A stretch of DNA of 6,357 nt, taken from assembly GCA_016929465.1 (NCBI GenBank), contig JAFGIT010000027.1, positions 1 through 6,357 on the forward strand. The letters run 5' to 3'. This document shows positions 280 through 6,124 of this stretch, in pieces (position 1 is the first letter of the stretch; the number at the start of each line of letters is the position of its first letter). A program made the position numbers and the translations under genes. The DNA comes from JAFGIT01 sp016929465 [NCBI: Candidatus Coatesbacteria bacterium] (GTDB lineage Bacteria; B130-G9). A model generated the notes under the pieces. That model was not told where the DNA came from, did no database searches, and was given only the letters and a program-made list of their open reading frames with translations.

Positions 280-288
280 TCAGTGCTT
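234..288. repeat. 55-bp nested inverted repeat spanning the TGA
   Basis: The outer arms 234-247 and 275-288 pair over 14 positions with one mismatch (240 against 282). Inside them an independent hairpin, 253-257 with 264-268 (CGGGG/CCCCG), encloses a 6-nt loop. The outer and inner stems are separated by asymmetric internal loops. The repeat lies between two convergent genes and includes the last three codons and TGA of the minus-strand gene. Neither side shows a T-tract, so it is not a canonical intrinsic terminator. It could still act as a bidirectional mRNA 3'-end structure. On the minus strand its position relative to the TGA resembles a bacterial SECIS element. Confidence 0.75.
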
Positions 289-558
289 CATTTCCGCAGT
301 TGTGTGGTCCGCGTCCATCATGAACTGCCACAGAGCCTCCGTCGCTACATCAATGATCTCTGGATCGTCGCTATTCTTGATGACGTGCTCCAGTTGGACC
401 CTGCATGCATCTTTCAGCCTCACGATCTCCTCTGCAAGTGGAGCAATCAATTTCTGGGCTATGGGGTCTCCCATTTCCGCATGACGCTCGATAGTTGCCA
501 AACCTTGCTCCATTTTTGCAAGATTAAGCTCCAACTGCGCCAGGATTCTATTTTTCAT
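280..558 (-). CDS. Small helical protein of unknown function, 92 residues
   Basis: The start chosen is the ATG at 556-558, because GAGGAG sits eight bases upstream. A longer reading from 621 would add 21 residues with no ribosome binding site. The protein is acidic and almost wholly alpha-helical in character. An N-terminal amphipathic helix (about residues 4-28, ILAQLELNLAKMEQGLATIE) is followed by a GDP break. A second helix (about 33-62, LIAPLAEEIVRLKDACRVQL) and a third (about 68-84, IIDVATEALWQFMMDAD) come next. It looks like a small helical bundle or coiled-coil adaptor. It has one Cys (in DACRV), no signal peptide and no membrane segment. I do not recognise a family. The stop is TGA, and the frame reopens beyond it for 25 codons inside a strong hairpin, so the true C-terminus is uncertain. 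The opposite strand is also open here but lacks the ribosome binding site support. Confidence 0.7.
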   Translation of the reverse strand: MKNRILAQLELNLAKMEQGLATIERHAEMGDPIAQKLIAPLAEEIVRLKDACRVQLEHVIKNSDDPEIIDVATEALWQFMMDADHTTAEMKH

Positions 559-566
559 CGAAAATG

Positions 567-572
567 CTCCTC
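567..572 (-). promoter_or_regulatory. Ribosome binding site GAGGAG of the small gene
   Basis: On the minus strand GAGGAG lies eight bases before the ATG at 556-558. It is a strong, well-spaced Shine-Dalgarno match that decides the start codon and argues that this short frame is really translated. Confidence 0.75.
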
Positions 573-747
573 GGTGAAATCGATTCTCGATAAATGCCAG
601 AACGCTGGAACGTATTACCATTATTATTCCTACACAACCAGCCTCGAATCTGGGCCCACAGACTCAGGTTCAAGTCTACTTCATCCCCATCCCACATTCA
701 GAGCATAGCCAAAGCTGAAGAAGAAGTCAAGTCGATGGCGAAAGAGG

Positions 748-895: not shown

Positions 896-935
896 CCGCC
901 CTCCCGCCAATCGCGAGCGATTGGCGGGAGGGCGG
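896..935. repeat. 40-bp perfect palindrome
   Basis: Arms of 19 nt (896-914 and 917-935) are exactly complementary around a two-base centre (GA). Further pairing with two G-T wobbles extends to 892-939. The arm is C-rich on the left (CCGCCCTCCCGCCAATCGC) and pairs with a G-rich right arm. The left flank is T-rich (TTTTTTCTT) and the right flank is TCTCTTTT. The right flank would make only a weak T-tract for a plus-strand intrinsic terminator. For minus-strand transcription the sequence after the stem is A-rich, so it is not a standard terminator of lptFG. It most resembles a REP-like or other dispersed palindromic element. Confidence 0.85.
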
Positions 936-1005
936 GAGGTCTCTTTTGCGCTTCTCAGAATCCGTGGGTTTGGCCTTCAGCCTGCACCAAACGGCTACTC
1001 ATACG

Positions 1006-1022
1006 ATGCCCCGCTGGGGCAT
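1006..1022. repeat. Hairpin ATGCCCC-GCT-GGGGCAT
   Basis: Perfect 7-bp GC-rich stem with a 3-nt loop, extendable by one G-T and one C-G pair. It lies about 145 bp downstream of the lptFG stop on the minus strand and has no T-tract. It could stabilise an mRNA 3' end. Confidence 0.55.
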
Positions 1023-1033
1023 TGACTGAGCAA

Positions 1034-1060
1034 AGCAAATTAATTAGATGGCAATTTGCT
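1034..1060. repeat. Hairpin AGCAAATT / AATTTGCT
   Basis: Perfect 8-bp arms separated by 11 nt, about 105 bp beyond the lptFG stop. On the minus strand it is followed by TTGCTCAG, too poor in T to call an intrinsic terminator. It is the nearest clear stem-loop downstream of lptFG, so it is the best candidate for a weak transcript end. Confidence 0.45.
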
Positions 1061-1165
1061 GGAATCATTGCTTGCCCAACTCACCTACAATTCTGGGTCA
1101 CGCTCGCGAAAGAGACTTTTAGAGAGCCAATAGGTCGGAAATCTCGGCAAGACCGGGATGGCCTG

Positions 1166-3622
1166 CTACGTCCTGGCGTGGCTGTATAAAAAGAGACCGA
1201 CTATCCCAAAGAGGGCATTCGCCGCCCAGGCAGCGAGGAAGTCAGGTATCCGACCGCTATGGCCGAAGGAAATGAATGAAGAGTGAATGACGAAAAATAG
1301 CCCCGCTATGCCGATCGCGGCCCCAAGGCCGATCAGCTTACCACTCTTGCCAGCCATTGCGCCGAGTGGAACTGCTATCAGCGCTATGATCACTGCAATC
1401 GTCGGCAGAGCGATCTTGTTGGCTAGATCGGTCTCATACTGCTGATAGCTATAGCCAGCCTTCCTGAGCTCCTCAATGTAATCGCTCAGCTCCTTGTAGC
1501 TCATCTCGTCCGGGTTGGGGCGCAGTTTGATGAAATCACCCGGCGTCTCCTCCAGCTTTAATTTAAGGCGTCCCCTGGTCTCCGATCTCGGGCCCTCGGG
1601 TGTGATCCATCTTATATCGACATCCTCGAAGCACCAGATGCCGTCGGCATAATAGGCAGTATCGGCCTGCAGTATATCCTTTATGCGGAATTCATCGTCG
1701 AATTCGAATATCGTAACTCCCTTGATGACGGGCTCGGGCGGCCTCTGATCGATATAGGTTATATTGTAGATACGATTGCCAGCACCTCTATACCACATCC
1801 TGTGCTTTGAGAACTTGCTCTTCTTCTCCCTCTGGTTGATGTCCTCGTGCTTTATGCGCTCGGCCTCCCGGTTCGTGTATGGCACGATGTACTCATTCAG
1901 GGCGAACGACAGCGAGCTTGCCATAAGGGCGACCGTGAGTATCCCCACGGAGACCCGCTGCAGGCTGATGCCGCCGGAGAGAAGGACGGTCAGCTCATTA
2001 CCTCTCGCCATCAGATTGATAGTCATCATTGCGGTGACCAAGACCGCCATCGGAATAGTCCAGAAGAGGAGCTGGGGGATTGAATACAGCATGTAATTCA
2101 CGGCGGACATGACGCCGGATTTGTGCTCTATAACGTCATCGATCACCTCGATGAAATTGACGACGCAGAAGACCGCAATGAGCCCGCTGGTGACAATCCC
2201 CATTATCCGAATGAACTTCGCCATGATGTACCTATCGAGCAGCCTCGGAAAGCGAACTCGCCCACTTCCGGTCCAGTACCCCTTGAATCTGTGCCCCCCG
2301 GGTACCCATGGCCGGAACTTGCCGATCATCCCCAACTTGGAAAACAGCCTGGCTCCCTTTTGTCCAAAGGCATAGAACCAGTCAGTCAGCCTGGTCCAGA
2401 TTCTGGGGAGCTTCTCATGCGAGGAATAGTAAAGCAGGAACGCGGCGAAAACGCTCAGCAGTATATTCGGAAACCAAACCGATAAAAACGGCGGTACATC
2501 GCCATTGTCGCCAAGATTCTCGCCACCCGAGAGCAATACATAATAGACCAAAAAGAGCAGGATGCTGATCCCGATGCTGCCTCCTTGCTTGCGACGGCGA
2601 CTAAAAATGCCTAGTGGAACCGCAATGATCGCGAAGATTACGCACGCGAATGGCAGCGAGAACTTCTTGTGGAGTTCGACTCGGCTAGAATTATACATCC
2701 ATTGCCAATATCTACTGGTCTTGCGAAGGTCATCGAGCTTCTTATCTTCGACCTTCTCGTCGCCCGTCTTCAGCAGCGCTTCTTCATAGGCGTGTAGGTG
2801 AGTATTCATGTTCGCCATGTTTCCCGCAACGACAGCTCTCAGCTCAGAGATAGTCATCTCCCTGTGCCCGAGCGGGATCTTCTTGCGCAGTTTCTCCCGC
2901 TCCTTCTGAGTCAAGAGGGGCATCATGTAAGACTCAAAGCTAGCTATCGAATACCTATCACCGCGCGCGGCGGGGAGCTCGTGAACAGTGCCGTTTTCAG
3001 CGTATATGCTCACTTGGTCGCTTTGCTCGACGGAAATAAATCTGCCCCTGGATGCGACCACGATCTTGGTGGTGCCATCATCCTCAGTCCGGGACACGAA
3101 TATATTCTTCAGCAGCCGCTCATCCGGTGGAATTTCCTGAGCGTAAATGATGGCATCCTTGAATTGGTCGTAGAAGACCATCGGCTGTATCTGAGTATCG
3201 AAATGCTTTACCGCCATCTCAGCTATCTTCTCCTTGGCCGGCCTGTTTGCGTAAGGCAGGACGTAGAGCATTATACTGGACGACACCAGCCAGCCGGCGA
3301 GCCCAAAAATAAGCGGGGCACGCAGCATCCTGAACAGGCTAACCCCAGTGGCCTTCAGCGCGACTATCTCATTGTCGGCCGACATCCTCGAGAAGGTCAT
3401 CAGGATCGAGACCAGGACCGCCATAGGAATGGAAAGCACGAGAAGCGAGGGCATCAAAAAAAGAAGGAACATCAGAAACAACGACGCCGGAACGCCCTTG
3501 TTGATGATCAACTCCATCAACTTGAGCATCTTGTCCATGATCAGGACAGTAGTGATCAGGGCTATGCAGAGGCCGAATGGGGCGACCATCTGCCGGAGAA
3601 TGTATCTATCCAGGCGGTTCAT
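1166..3622 (-). CDS. lptFG: LptF-LptG fusion: LPS export permease, both transmembrane subunits in one chain
   Basis: LptF and LptG are inner-membrane subunits of the LptB2FG ABC transporter, which extracts LPS from the inner membrane and passes it through periplasmic beta-jellyroll domains to LptC/LptA. Here both are one 818-residue chain. Residues 1-401 are LptF-like: an LDRYILRQM start, coupling-type motif SADNEIVALKATGVS (81-95), three N-terminal membrane helices, a periplasmic domain (about 125-315) and LPFACVIFAIIAVPLGI (323-339) opening the last three helices. Residues 461-818 are LptG-like: LLDRYIMAKF, ARGNELTVLLSGGIS (539-553), a periplasmic domain (about 585-730) with MSYKELSDYIEELRKAGYS (707-725), then IALPTIAVIIALIAVPLG (737-754). 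A basic, aromatic linker (402-460) joins two ends that are both normally cytoplasmic. Separate subunits are about 360 residues each, in the same F-then-G order. No Shine-Dalgarno is clear; the ATG is chosen because the conserved N-terminus begins there. No lptB, lptC or lptA is present in the window. Confidence 0.93.
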   Translation of the reverse strand: MNRLDRYILRQMVAPFGLCIALITTVLIMDKMLKLMELIINKGVPASLFLMFLLFLMPSLLVLSIPMAVLVSILMTFSRMSADNEIVALKATGVSLFRMLRAPLIFGLAGWLVSSSIMLYVLPYANRPAKEKIAEMAVKHFDTQIQPMVFYDQFKDAIIYAQEIPPDERLLKNIFVSRTEDDGTTKIVVASRGRFISVEQSDQVSIYAENGTVHELPAARGDRYSIASFESYMMPLLTQKEREKLRKKIPLGHREMTISELRAVVAGNMANMNTHLHAYEEALLKTGDEKVEDKKLDDLRKTSRYWQWMYNSSRVELHKKFSLPFACVIFAIIAVPLGIFSRRRKQGGSIGISILLFLVYYVLLSGGENLGDNGDVPPFLSVWFPNILLSVFAAFLLYYSSHEKLPRIWTRLTDWFYAFGQKGARLFSKLGMIGKFRPWVPGGHRFKGYWTGSGRVRFPRLLDRYIMAKFIRIMGIVTSGLIAVFCVVNFIEVIDDVIEHKSGVMSAVNYMLYSIPQLLFWTIPMAVLVTAMMTINLMARGNELTVLLSGGISLQRVSVGILTVALMASSLSFALNEYIVPYTNREAERIKHEDINQREKKSKFSKHRMWYRGAGNRIYNITYIDQRPPEPVIKGVTIFEFDDEFRIKDILQADTAYYADGIWCFEDVDIRWITPEGPRSETRGRLKLKLEETPGDFIKLRPNPDEMSYKELSDYIEELRKAGYSYQQYETDLANKIALPTIAVIIALIAVPLGAMAGKSGKLIGLGAAIGIAGLFFVIHSSFISFGHSGRIPDFLAAWAANALFGIVGLFLYSHART

Positions 3623-3657
3623 CTTCGACCGATCGCGTGAGTTAATATGCGCATACT

Positions 3658-3666
3658 ATTATAGCA
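3658..3666 (-). promoter_or_regulatory. Extended -10 promoter of lptFG
   Basis: The minus strand reads TGCTATAAT, a perfect extended -10 element (TGn followed by consensus TATAAT). It lies in the 75-bp gap between the two large genes. No good -35 hexamer sits at 16-18 bp, which is usual for extended -10 promoters. Transcription would start near 3651 and give a leader of about 30 nt before the ATG at 3622. The lptFG gene can therefore be expressed apart from its upstream neighbour. Confidence 0.6.
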
Positions 3667-3697
3667 AACTGACGCGCCTTTGGTTTTGTGAACCGGT

Positions 3698-6124
3698 CTA
3701 ACAGGCCTCCCTGCTAGCCATTCCAACGGCGACAATCGCGACGATATAGGCCAGCATCCCGAGGATTAGGCAGCCGGAAAAACCGACCCACATCCCGATT
3801 ATGATCGCGAGGATCGAGCCCAGGACCGATGTCAGACCGTTCACAGCCCAGGCCCAAGGGACTATGTATTCACCTCCCCCCGCAAGCGCCTTTATGCCCA
3901 GCGGGAACATTCGGCCCATGGAAAGCCCGAGTGGCAGCAGCACCACCCCACACACGATGAACCGAACCGCGAGAGGGGATGCCATAAACTGCTCGAATAT
4001 CCAGGCCGAGAGCAGGATGAATAGCCCAAGCACGATGATCACCATGACCGCCGAAGACATCGAATGAGCACGCAGTCTCCTAAGGTCCGGCAAATCGGCT
4101 TCCCCATCTTCCCTACCCTTCTTAATTCCCGCTCTCTCCGTGAGGAGGCTCCCGATGCCCGTGAATAGAAGCAGTGAGAACAGAACTGCAAGAAGCGAGT
4201 AGGTTGGATGTCCCAGGAATAAAGTGAGTTTCTGCATGATCGATATCTCGGCGAGCATGAATCCGAGGCCTATCGATGCGAAGTAAAGGAGGCTGGGCAA
4301 AGCGGCAACCGACTTGCCCTCCAGACGGCCTGTCTTGAAGTAGAGCGGCAGCAGTATGAGCAGGGCACTCAAGACTAGATATACAATAAACAAGAAGGCG
4401 ACGACGAGCTGAGCATACAGGTTATGATCGAGGATGCTCCCGAGACCCTCCAGCGACTTGAACACGGAAAACGGCTTCAAAAGGTTGAAGAAGAACGGCC
4501 TGTCGTCGGTCGGAGGTGACACATCGAGAGGGTATTCATCATAAAAAGCGTCCCGGTCCTTGCTCCGTATCAGCTTCTCGAAGGTCGGCTCCCCGCCGTG
4601 ATGCGGCAGAAACAGAATAGTATAGTGCAGGTTGTCCGCGATGCCTTTCAGCAGCTCTATTTCGTCGATGGTGAATGGGCTCTTTTTGAGCAGCGTGGTC
4701 GCAGCAGGATCGCACGCCAGGACGGCTATATGCCGGCCGGGTGATTCAATGCCCTGGTCCTCCAGGCACGCGATCGCCAGAGAAACGACGCGAAGCGACT
4801 GGCTGGGCATCTTTGAGTAATAGCGTGAGAATGAGAGTAGGCCATCGTCGTTGAGCTTCTCCCAGTATTCGTTGAATGCCTCTTTTGTGTATAGATTGTT
4901 CTCTGAGAGCGAAAAGGCGCCGGCTGCGGTCGCGGCCCACGTGTCGGTCATCGATGACTGTATGATGTCGAATTTCCTTTTCGAGCGGCGGATCTGGCTC
5001 CTTGCATCATCAACCACGACATTCACATCGGGACGAGCATAGATATCCCCGACAAATTTCGCGAAGTGCTTGCCGACAACATCGACCATCAACGAATTTA
5101 TGTCCGCTGCGAATACCGCCTTTGCTCCGAACATCAGAGACGACATGATATCGCGTCCACCGCCTGGGCCGATGATGAAAACGTCCGGGTCACCCTTCAG
5201 ATAGTGCACTATCTCGGTGATGTCGTATTTGAGAAAGTCGAGCTTCGAGAAATCGCCGTCGAAATTGACTAGCGGCGTAGCAGCAGCAGCGTCTATCTGA
5301 ACCGCGAGCATCGTCGGCAGTTCGCCGTTAAAGGTTTCACTGACTCCCCAGCCGGAGACCGAATGCCAGGGGAATACATCGACCCTGGAGAGCGAGTTCC
5401 ACTCAATGAATAGCAGCTCCGGTCGCTTGCCCTCATTGATCAGCGCGAAATCACGCTTGGACGTTATCTCCAGAATGTCATCCCGATGAGAGAAGATCGC
5501 AAGGATCAGAAGGATGCAGATGCCGACCACCGCAAAGCCGACTGCCGGCCGCCTGCCCTCGAATGCGCCGAAGAATGCAGCTCCGACGCCCCCAACCGCT
5601 GCTATGATCGGGACCGCCGTGGGCGAGCCGAGATACTCCATAACGGCAACGATCGCGATACAGCCGCAGGCCGCACCCGCGAGGTCTGCAAAATAGAGCT
5701 TGCTGATCATCCTGGTGTAAGTCCGAAGTGCAATCGCGACGCAAATCCCGGCGACCAGGAAGGGTATGGTCCACTCAACGCATAGCAGAAACAGCCTGAA
5801 GAAGGAATCGAGCGTCATCTTCGCCTCGAATGGGAACCACTTGAAGAGAAGGAACGCACCAAGTGTACATGCAGAAAATAGGATGCCAAACGCCGACAGA
5901 TACGGCGGGGAATCGCTCTTAATGAGCCGATCACCGAATACGTAGGTCAGGACCCCGCCGGCGCTCAGGCCGAAAAGCGCCATAGTGACCGCAAGAAACG
6001 AAAAGTGATAGAACATCACCACCGAGAAGAGGCGAGTGATGTTCACCTCGAGCATCAATAGCGCGAGGGTCGTAAAAAATATGCCCAAAAAGAGGAGCGA
6101 TCTCCGCCCCTGGTGTCCTTCCAA
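3698..6124 (-). CDS. Membrane-embedded spermidine-synthase-like protein
   Basis: This 808-residue protein has three parts. The N-terminal part (about 10-211) has roughly seven membrane helices and the family-typical YFADLAGAACG (144-154). The central soluble domain (about 215-550) is a Rossmann fold of spermidine-synthase/methyltransferase type: glycine loop FIIGPGGGRD (316-325), acidic ribose-binding end AADIN (339-343), DDARS (372-376), FDIIQSSMTDT (385-395), NNLYTKEAF (409-417), and the closing PPTDDRPFFF (537-546). The C-terminal part (about 569-802) has about seven helices with GFMLAEISIMQKLTLFLGHP (621-640) and VPWAWAVNGLTSVLGS (755-770). Proteins of this build are annotated as spermidine-synthase-like membrane proteins and their substrate is unknown to me. 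In a hand alignment the catalytic Asp of true spermidine synthases falls on Ser, so polyamine synthesis is doubtful and binding of (decarboxylated) SAM or a related nucleotide is the safer statement. Translation starts at TTG (6122-6124), with GAGG five bases upstream. Confidence 0.85.
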   Translation of the reverse strand: MEGHQGRRSLLFLGIFFTTLALLMLEVNITRLFSVVMFYHFSFLAVTMALFGLSAGGVLTYVFGDRLIKSDSPPYLSAFGILFSACTLGAFLLFKWFPFEAKMTLDSFFRLFLLCVEWTIPFLVAGICVAIALRTYTRMISKLYFADLAGAACGCIAIVAVMEYLGSPTAVPIIAAVGGVGAAFFGAFEGRRPAVGFAVVGICILLILAIFSHRDDILEITSKRDFALINEGKRPELLFIEWNSLSRVDVFPWHSVSGWGVSETFNGELPTMLAVQIDAAAATPLVNFDGDFSKLDFLKYDITEIVHYLKGDPDVFIIGPGGGRDIMSSLMFGAKAVFAADINSLMVDVVGKHFAKFVGDIYARPDVNVVVDDARSQIRRSKRKFDIIQSSMTDTWAATAAGAFSLSENNLYTKEAFNEYWEKLNDDGLLSFSRYYSKMPSQSLRVVSLAIACLEDQGIESPGRHIAVLACDPAATTLLKKSPFTIDEIELLKGIADNLHYTILFLPHHGGEPTFEKLIRSKDRDAFYDEYPLDVSPPTDDRPFFFNLLKPFSVFKSLEGLGSILDHNLYAQLVVAFLFIVYLVLSALLILLPLYFKTGRLEGKSVAALPSLLYFASIGLGFMLAEISIMQKLTLFLGHPTYSLLAVLFSLLLFTGIGSLLTERAGIKKGREDGEADLPDLRRLRAHSMSSAVMVIIVLGLFILLSAWIFEQFMASPLAVRFIVCGVVLLPLGLSMGRMFPLGIKALAGGGEYIVPWAWAVNGLTSVLGSILAIIIGMWVGFSGCLILGMLAYIVAIVAVGMASREAC

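What the first reader, a model, noticed from the sequence alone, without database searches (positions are those of the whole stretch)
1166..3622. LptF and LptG fused into one 818-residue LPS-export permease
Both halves keep their own family signatures (LDRY start, coupling motif, periplasmic domain, LP...AVPLG helix), so this is a full heterodimer in a single chain and not a duplication of one half. The order matches the usual lptF-lptG gene order, consistent with loss of a stop codon between neighbours. The junction is topologically sound because both joined ends are cytoplasmic. It would fix subunit stoichiometry at 1:1. I believe two-domain proteins of this permease family exist in some lineages, so the architecture may not be new, but it is uncommon and useful as a lineage marker.
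Basis: partly seen in the sequence, partly recalled or inferred. Interest (0 to 1): 0.6.

Follow-up and report, generated by a model that had tools for sequence, protein, structure and literature searches.

The report
LptF and LptG fused into one protein
In this bacterium the two halves of the membrane pump that sends lipopolysaccharide to the cell surface are made as one protein; the fusion is real, looks ancient, is the usual form in at least two other groups of bacteria, and in several genomes comes with a second fusion in the same export machine.

Summary
Observation confirmed. Window 1166-3622 (-) is one uninterrupted 818-codon frame. Scanned alone, the N half passes only the LptF equivalog model and the C half only LptG. 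No other LptF/LptG is found in the 86%-complete genome. Two other genera of the family carry the same fusion (65% and 59% identical), so an assembly error is very unlikely. The junction is a basic linker of about 50 residues, presumably cytoplasmic. Both coupling-helix glutamates are kept. LptB, LptD and LpxC are present. The protein is best read as the whole transmembrane part of a single-chain LptB2FG exporter. "Uncommon" is half right: at least 12 of 386 broadly sampled genomes are fused, but 81 of 99 in one large phylum and 6-7 of 8 in another. A linker-free tree puts 31 fused rows from three phyla in one clade (SH-aLRT 96); three more fused genes lie outside it, so fusion probably arose several times. 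All seven belong to that clade. My literature searches listed no description of either natural fusion. Function is inferred; nothing was tested biochemically.

The parts
1166..3622 (-). fused lptF-lptG gene, 818 aa (ATG at 3622, stop 1166-1168)
   Evidence: fused orthologues in G001 and G002
2423..3622 (-). N half, LptF-type permease (residues 1-400): predicted helices, coupling helix, periplasmic beta-jellyroll, helices
   Evidence: NCBIfam LptF 258.5 bits (cut-off 230), LptG only 148.2 (cut-off 240) (scanned as residues 1-407); tree; model
3368..3370 (-). codon of Glu85, aligned to E. coli LptF E84 (coupling helix)
   Evidence: role of E84 from PMC5082905 (passages)
2918..3178 (-). predicted periplasmic beta-jellyroll strands of the LptF half (residues 149-235)
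   Evidence: strand pattern of the model
2249..2422 (-). inter-half linker (residues 401-458 by my division), basic; includes a predicted helix 407-429
   Evidence: alignment A1; pN 0.40-0.49 against pS 0.72-0.85; no start codon at a column shared by all three family members, though one column (446) has TTG in G001 and ATG in G002; charge; pLDDT under 50 at 428-462
1169..2248 (-). C half, LptG-type permease (residues 459-818)
   Evidence: NCBIfam LptG 273.6 bits (cut-off 240), LptF only 134.1 (cut-off 230) (scanned as residues 455-818); tree
1994..1996 (-). codon of Glu543, aligned to E. coli LptG E88 (coupling helix)
   Evidence: PMC5082905 (passages)
1577..1801 (-). predicted periplasmic beta-jellyroll strands of the LptG half (residues 608-682)
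   Evidence: strand pattern of the model, low confidence
3698..6124 (-). upstream neighbour on the same strand: membrane protein with a spermidine-synthase-like domain, 808 aa from a TTG; adjacency also in G001. Not claimed to be part of the exporter

Best explanation
The gene encodes the complete transmembrane half of the LPS exporter as one chain: an LptF module (6 TM helices, periplasmic jellyroll), a cytoplasmic basic linker of about 50 residues, and an LptG module. It pairs with two copies of the separately encoded ATPase LptB (own genome contig C6), one at each coupling helix. [quoted passage not shown] In this lineage LptC and LptA-type domains are themselves one chain, which hands LPS on to LptD. 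The fusion fixes F:G at 1:1 in cis. Shown here: the fused frame, identity of each half, conservation, both coupling glutamates, presence of partner genes, the LptC-LptA fusion. Inferred: membrane topology, assembly with LptB, substrate, transport cycle, and that the chain stays uncleaved.
For: frame and identity of halves; fused orthologues in two other genera; linker under amino-acid constraint, no internal start shared by all three and no Shine-Dalgarno-like string before the candidates; trees; Glu85 and Glu543; sequence and fold matches to solved LptF/LptG chains; LptD, LptB, LpxC in own genome; LptC-LptA fusion in G000 and G001.
Against: No biochemistry, no read mapping. The structure model is weak (mean pLDDT 66, pTM 0.49) and does not by itself show that the halves pack as a heterodimer. 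The own genome is 86% complete, so a second lptF or lptG could be in the missing part. One linker column carries a possible start codon in two of the three family members (TTG in G001, ATG in G002), though not in the window. Cleavage at the variable linker cannot be excluded.
Confidence: 0.92

Rival explanations
1. Assembly or sequencing artefact: a stop or frameshift between two normal genes was lost in the MAG.
For: Single MAG contig of 6357 bases; no reads could be mapped.
Against: Same fused frame, in-frame linker of near-equal length, in two other genera, and a fused frame in 22 of 22 further loci of two other phyla re-checked by my own ORF calling.
Confidence: 0.02
2. The frame is fused but two proteins are made, by internal initiation in the linker or by proteolysis of the linker.
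For: The linker is the most variable part of the chain and has low model confidence. ATG or TTG codons occur in it, and one column (446) has TTG in G001 and ATG in G002.
Against: No candidate start codon is at a column shared by all three family members; the window's own candidates (TTG 430, ATG 432) are unique to it, and none of the five candidates has a Shine-Dalgarno-like string in the 20 bases before it; the linker still shows pN below pS.
Confidence: 0.06
3. A duplicated single-type permease, or a relative that exports another lipid rather than LPS.
For: The halves are distant homologues of each other; the substrate was not tested.
Against: The halves pass different equivalog models and split to opposite sides of the tree; LpxC and LptD are encoded in the same genome.
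Confidence: 0.03

Closest known systems
LptB2FG(C), type VI ABC transporter (E. coli, Vibrio cholerae, Acinetobacter and others)
   Same: Each half matches solved LptF or LptG chains by sequence and the model matches them by fold; both coupling glutamates are kept; LptB present.
   Different: F and G are one chain here. The classification paper PMC8386196 lists type VI as '6 + 6 Heterodimer' only, while type V includes single chains (passages).
Other natural LptF-LptG fusions found here (G079, G085, G087, G089, G107, G221, G225, G346, G350 and most of the phylum of G350)
   Same: Same F-linker-G order, linkers of 23-68 residues in the 34 examined.
   Different: 27-31% identical to the window's protein in the five outside the own family that I aligned to it; G087, G089 and G107 lie outside the main fused clade and have an unfused LptC.
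Single LptF/G homologue of diderm Firmicutes (PMC5007114)
   Same: One permease gene instead of two.
   Different: There the paper reports 'a single homologue of LptF/G' (passage); I take this to be one half, not both halves in one chain, but did not check those genes.

Membership tests
LptF (TIGR04407) | N half alone passes the equivalog cut-off and fails LptG's | tested here: met
   258.5 against 230; LptG 148.2 against 240
LptG (TIGR04408) | C half alone passes the equivalog cut-off and fails LptF's | tested here: met
   273.6 against 240; LptF 134.1 against 230
LptB2FG exporter (type VI ABC transporter) | conserved coupling-helix glutamate in both permease halves | tested here: met
   Glu85 and Glu543 align with E. 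coli E84 and E88
LptB2FG exporter (type VI ABC transporter) | an LptB ATPase in the same genome | tested here: met
   350.9 bits against 240, contig C6
LptB2FG exporter (type VI ABC transporter) | LptC, LptA and LptD partners and lipid A synthesis | tested here: met
   LptD (two matches over the cut-off, 65.9 and 23.4 bits against 22.4), LpxC as the one lipid A gene sought, LptC plus LptA domains
LptB2FG exporter (type VI ABC transporter) | 6 + 6 TM helices with a periplasmic jellyroll in each half | tested here: inconclusive
   Helix and strand pattern fits, but the model is weak (pLDDT 66); no TM predictor was run
LptB2FG exporter (type VI ABC transporter) | LptF and LptG as two separate chains (heterodimer) | tested here: not met
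   One frame, one chain predicted. This makes it a single-chain variant; it does not speak against the same way of working
LptB2FG exporter (type VI ABC transporter) | ATP-driven LPS extraction | not testable with these tools
   -

The most novel reading that the evidence does not exclude
A deep bacterial clade spanning at least three phyla inherited a consolidated LPS exporter from a common ancestor: LptF and LptG as one permease chain, and LptC, extra jellyrolls and LptA as one membrane-anchored chain. The trans-periplasmic bridge would then be a single covalent rod whose length is set by the gene, instead of an assembly of exchangeable LptA units.
Probability: 0.5. Interest if true: 0.62.

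Novelty: new variant of a known kind. Interest (0 to 1): 0.42.

Why it matters
LptB2FGC is a current antibiotic target, and the separate roles of LptF and LptG and the route LPS takes between them are studied with two-chain complexes. A natural single chain shows that F and G need not assemble from separate subunits and gives a fixed-stoichiometry construct for structural work. If the co-inherited LptC-LptA fusion is confirmed, these lineages would let one ask directly whether the LPS bridge has a fixed length and whether it must come apart. The fusion is also a useful, though not unique, character for deep bacterial phylogeny.

Tried and rejected
The 'open_frame_aa' column of the genome search cannot be used to call fusions: G025, G381 and G151 looked fused there but have one or two in-frame stops. 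I counted as fused only matches covering both halves without stops, and re-checked part of them by my own ORF calling: 12 of 12 and 22 further loci. In the phylum of G350, 22 of the 81 counted were re-checked in this way; the other 59 rest on the search table.

G028, G052, G140 and G322 have long frames but only one permease half in them: rejected as fusions.

LptC and LptA jellyrolls cross-match. Four further weak LptC matches in long frames were checked: two are LptD (G085:C21, G350:C38), one looks like an LptD-like N terminus with overlapping matches and LptC under its cut-off (G088:C34, an unfused genome), one an LptA-like protein with overlapping matches (G107:C14). None is an LptC followed by separate LptA domains, so I did not count them.

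Adding separate LptG rows to the structure alignment failed, because MAFFT placed them on the N half or apparently split them (judged from its summary). The model was therefore run with LptF rows only (A5), which leaves the C half poorly supported.

An AU test of 'all 34 fused rows are one clade' did not finish, so the number of fusion events rests on SH-aLRT support alone.

The only named record that I can tie to the family is JAGHCW010000035.1, isolate AUK292; a taxonomy search and the Auka vent paper PMC9213671 (passages only; no occurrence of AUK292) did not place it. That the record comes from that study is my inference from the isolate prefix. A plasmid search with the G350 fusion matched 56 records, 10 of them listed. 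The only one covering at least 80% of the query, a Fusobacterium vincentii record, has two separate overlapping genes, not a fusion; the others were not examined.

Rfam (gathering threshold) and tRNA scans of the window were empty. The consensus scan found no sigma-70-type promoter in 900-4000 and terminator-like sites near the chance level (4 against 2.5).

Literature: ten answered searches, nine of them on Lpt or YjgP/YjgQ and one on the Auka site. Searches found no paper; several lists were partial (37 of 38, 12 of 31, 15 of 18). No listed title or abstract start is about a natural LptF-LptG or LptC-LptA fusion. Passages, never whole texts, were seen of PMC10094684 (its 'fused' and 'fusion' places shown are about other systems), PMC8871954, PMC9213671, PMC5007114, PMC9972910, PMC8386196, PMC4986956 and PMC5082905. 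In the passages shown, 'lptCA' in PMC4986956 and PMC9972910 denotes two genes expressed together. Other papers were seen in the listings only. Subscription papers, preprints and database architecture pages are outside that library; I recall, from no call, that two-domain LptF_LptG proteins are listed in domain databases.

Full report
What is there. The window is a whole contig (G000:C395, 6357 bases) of an 86%-complete, 423-contig genome. On the minus strand, 1166-3622 is a single 818-codon frame without stops. Pfam finds LptF_LptG in two stretches. NCBIfam names LptF at 4-398 and LptG at 461-815. Scanned alone, the N half passes LptF (258.5 against 230) and fails LptG (148.2 against 240); the C half passes LptG (273.6 against 240) and fails LptF (134.1 against 230). 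phmmer against solved structures finds 18 sequences, with the LptG chains on the C half and the LptF chains on the N half.

Not an artefact. Of four held genomes of the phylum, three carry the gene, all fused, at 65% and 59% identity in two other genera, with an almost constant linker length. The fourth, G003 (83% complete), lacks both the gene and the upstream neighbour P0002, which suggests a missing stretch. Linker codons 401-458 show pN 0.40-0.49 against pS 0.72-0.85 in the three pairwise comparisons. Synonymous sites are close to saturation, so the contrast is qualitative. Five ATG/GTG/TTG codons lie in the three linkers; no column has one in all three genomes, but column 446 has TTG in G001 and ATG in G002, not in the window. 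None of the five has a Shine-Dalgarno-like string in the 20 bases before it. The linker is basic: net charge +4 or more in 32 of 34 fused proteins examined, median length 42.5 residues, as expected for a cytoplasmic loop.

Parts for function. Glu85 and Glu543 align with E. coli LptF E84 and LptG E88, the coupling-helix glutamates needed for assembly with LptB and for LPS release (PMC5082905, passages). The E84 position is Glu in 34 of 34 fused rows, the E88 position in 32 of 34, the two others being Gln. The own genome encodes LptB (350.9 bits, cut-off 240), LptD and LpxC. The AlphaFold model (ten rows, mean pLDDT 66, pTM 0.49) shows in each half helices, a short coupling helix, a beta domain and helices, and its best Foldseek matches in the PDB are LptF and LptG chains. 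It is too weak to prove packing of the halves.

How common. In 386 broadly sampled genomes, 335 have LptF/LptG matches. With a profile of fused chains, 12 of 386 show a match over both halves with no stop: three of the own family and G079, G085, G087, G089, G107, G221, G225, G346, G350. All 12 were confirmed by my own ORF calling (G002 through its named copy L035). This is a lower bound, since the E-value limit was strict (1e-90) and lists were cut. In some lineages it is the rule: in the phylum of G221, 6 of 8 genomes are clean fusions and a seventh, G389, is a partial match that spans the junction. In the phylum of G350, 81 of 99 sampled genomes have a full-length match without stops; 7 more have partial or split matches and 11 have none at that threshold, 7 of these from one family (my count from the rows). 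I re-checked 22 further loci of these two phyla by ORF calling and found a fused frame in 22 of 22.

History. In a tree of 116 halves, all 12 fused N halves sit with 48 LptF and all 12 C halves with 44 LptG (98 SH-aLRT), E. coli anchors included. Labels of the other unfused rows came from profiles built on the window's family, so the E. coli anchors are the independent check. In a tree of 70 concatenated F+G rows, 31 fused rows from three phyla form one clade (97). With linkers removed the support is 96, and G087, G089 and G107 fall elsewhere, four changes in all. The AU test did not finish, and many branches are long. A likely route is stop loss: in G381 an lptF with a basic tail is followed by one in-frame TAG and the ATG of lptG.

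A second fusion. Upstream of lptB in the own genome is a frame of at least 745 aa (cut by the contig end) that matches LptC and LptA-type domains and passes both NCBIfam equivalogs (LptA 131.8 against 71.7; LptC 55.4 against 38). In G001 the complete protein is 769 aa, LptC at 51-177 plus LptA-type (LptD_N) stretches further on: two at E up to 0.001, four at the lax limit of E up to 1. I then searched LptC in 36 chosen genomes: the four held members of the own phylum, nine other LptFG-fused genomes, and 23 unfused ones picked among strong LptF/G matches, not at random. Of 12 LptFG-fused genomes, 10 have an LptC match and in 7 (G000, G001, G079, G085, G221, G346, G350) it lies in one frame with separate, later LptA-type domains. 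G085's LptA score is 68.1, below the equivalog cut-off of 71.7, though its Pfam domain is well over cut-off. Of the two without a match, G002's frame is cut by its contig end and shows LptA-type domains only; in G225 nothing was found. G003's LptC frame (292 aa, cut by the contig end) shows no LptA domain in the visible part. Of 23 unfused genomes, 20 have an LptC match and none shows the fusion: by the table, 18 frames are only 99-270 aa, at least one of them at a contig start, and the two longer ones (G352, G286) lack LptA domains. Weak secondary matches in long frames were checked and are LptD-like or LptA-like. The three LptFG-fused exceptions (G087, G089, G107) are exactly those outside the main clade. 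I also looked in stretches of 3-20 kb beside lptFG of 19 further genomes: two show the fusion (G443; G467, whose LptC is at 20.9 bits, just under the cut-off of 21), one (G430) shows LptA-type domains in a frame cut by the stretch end, and 16 show no such gene within the stretch, which says nothing about the rest of those genomes. The genomes are related, so this is at most a few independent events.

Reading. The protein most likely works as LptB2FG does, with its two permease subunits in one chain. Among the features of the LptB2FG family that I tested, the one not met is separate chains, which is the point of the variant; the helix count stayed inconclusive. PMC8386196 lists type VI as heterodimer only (passages). 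The literature searches (given in Tried and rejected) listed no paper on either natural fusion. The single-gene finding is solid but moderate in interest; the clade-wide double fusion is the more interesting claim and is less well supported.

Noticed in passing
L099 1-2238 (+) (own genome, contig C6); L104 1863-4172 (-) (G001): LptC fused to LptA/OstA-type domains directly upstream of lptB, followed in the own genome by rpoN and an hpf-like gene; 769 aa in G001 with an N-terminal hydrophobic stretch.
   Followed up: partly
window 3698-6124 (-): Membrane protein of 808 aa with a spermidine-synthase-like domain (PF01564, 24.9 bits against 22.9) directly upstream of the fused gene, also adjacent in G001; a partial copy on another contig in G002.
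   Followed up: partly
L124 472-1965 (+) (G352); L125 47-1042 (-) (G286): LptC in frames with a long N-terminal part of unknown kind (LptC only at 346-483 and 175-320), no LptA domain.
   Followed up: no
G405:C134 and G405:C163: Two full-length fused LptFG matches in one genome of the phylum of G350.
   Followed up: no
family f284 of the phylum of G350 (G416, G429, G442, G454, G465, G476, G486): Seven of seven sampled genomes of one family, 98-100% complete, lack any match to the fused profile at E 1e-60: lost, divergent or replaced LptF/G.
   Followed up: no
L180 295-2883 (-) (G088): Frame of 863 aa with an LptA/LptD-type jellyroll near its N terminus but no LptD barrel match in Pfam.
   Followed up: no
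window 280-621 (-): Open frame of 113 aa (from an upstream ATG) without any Pfam or NCBIfam match.
   Followed up: no
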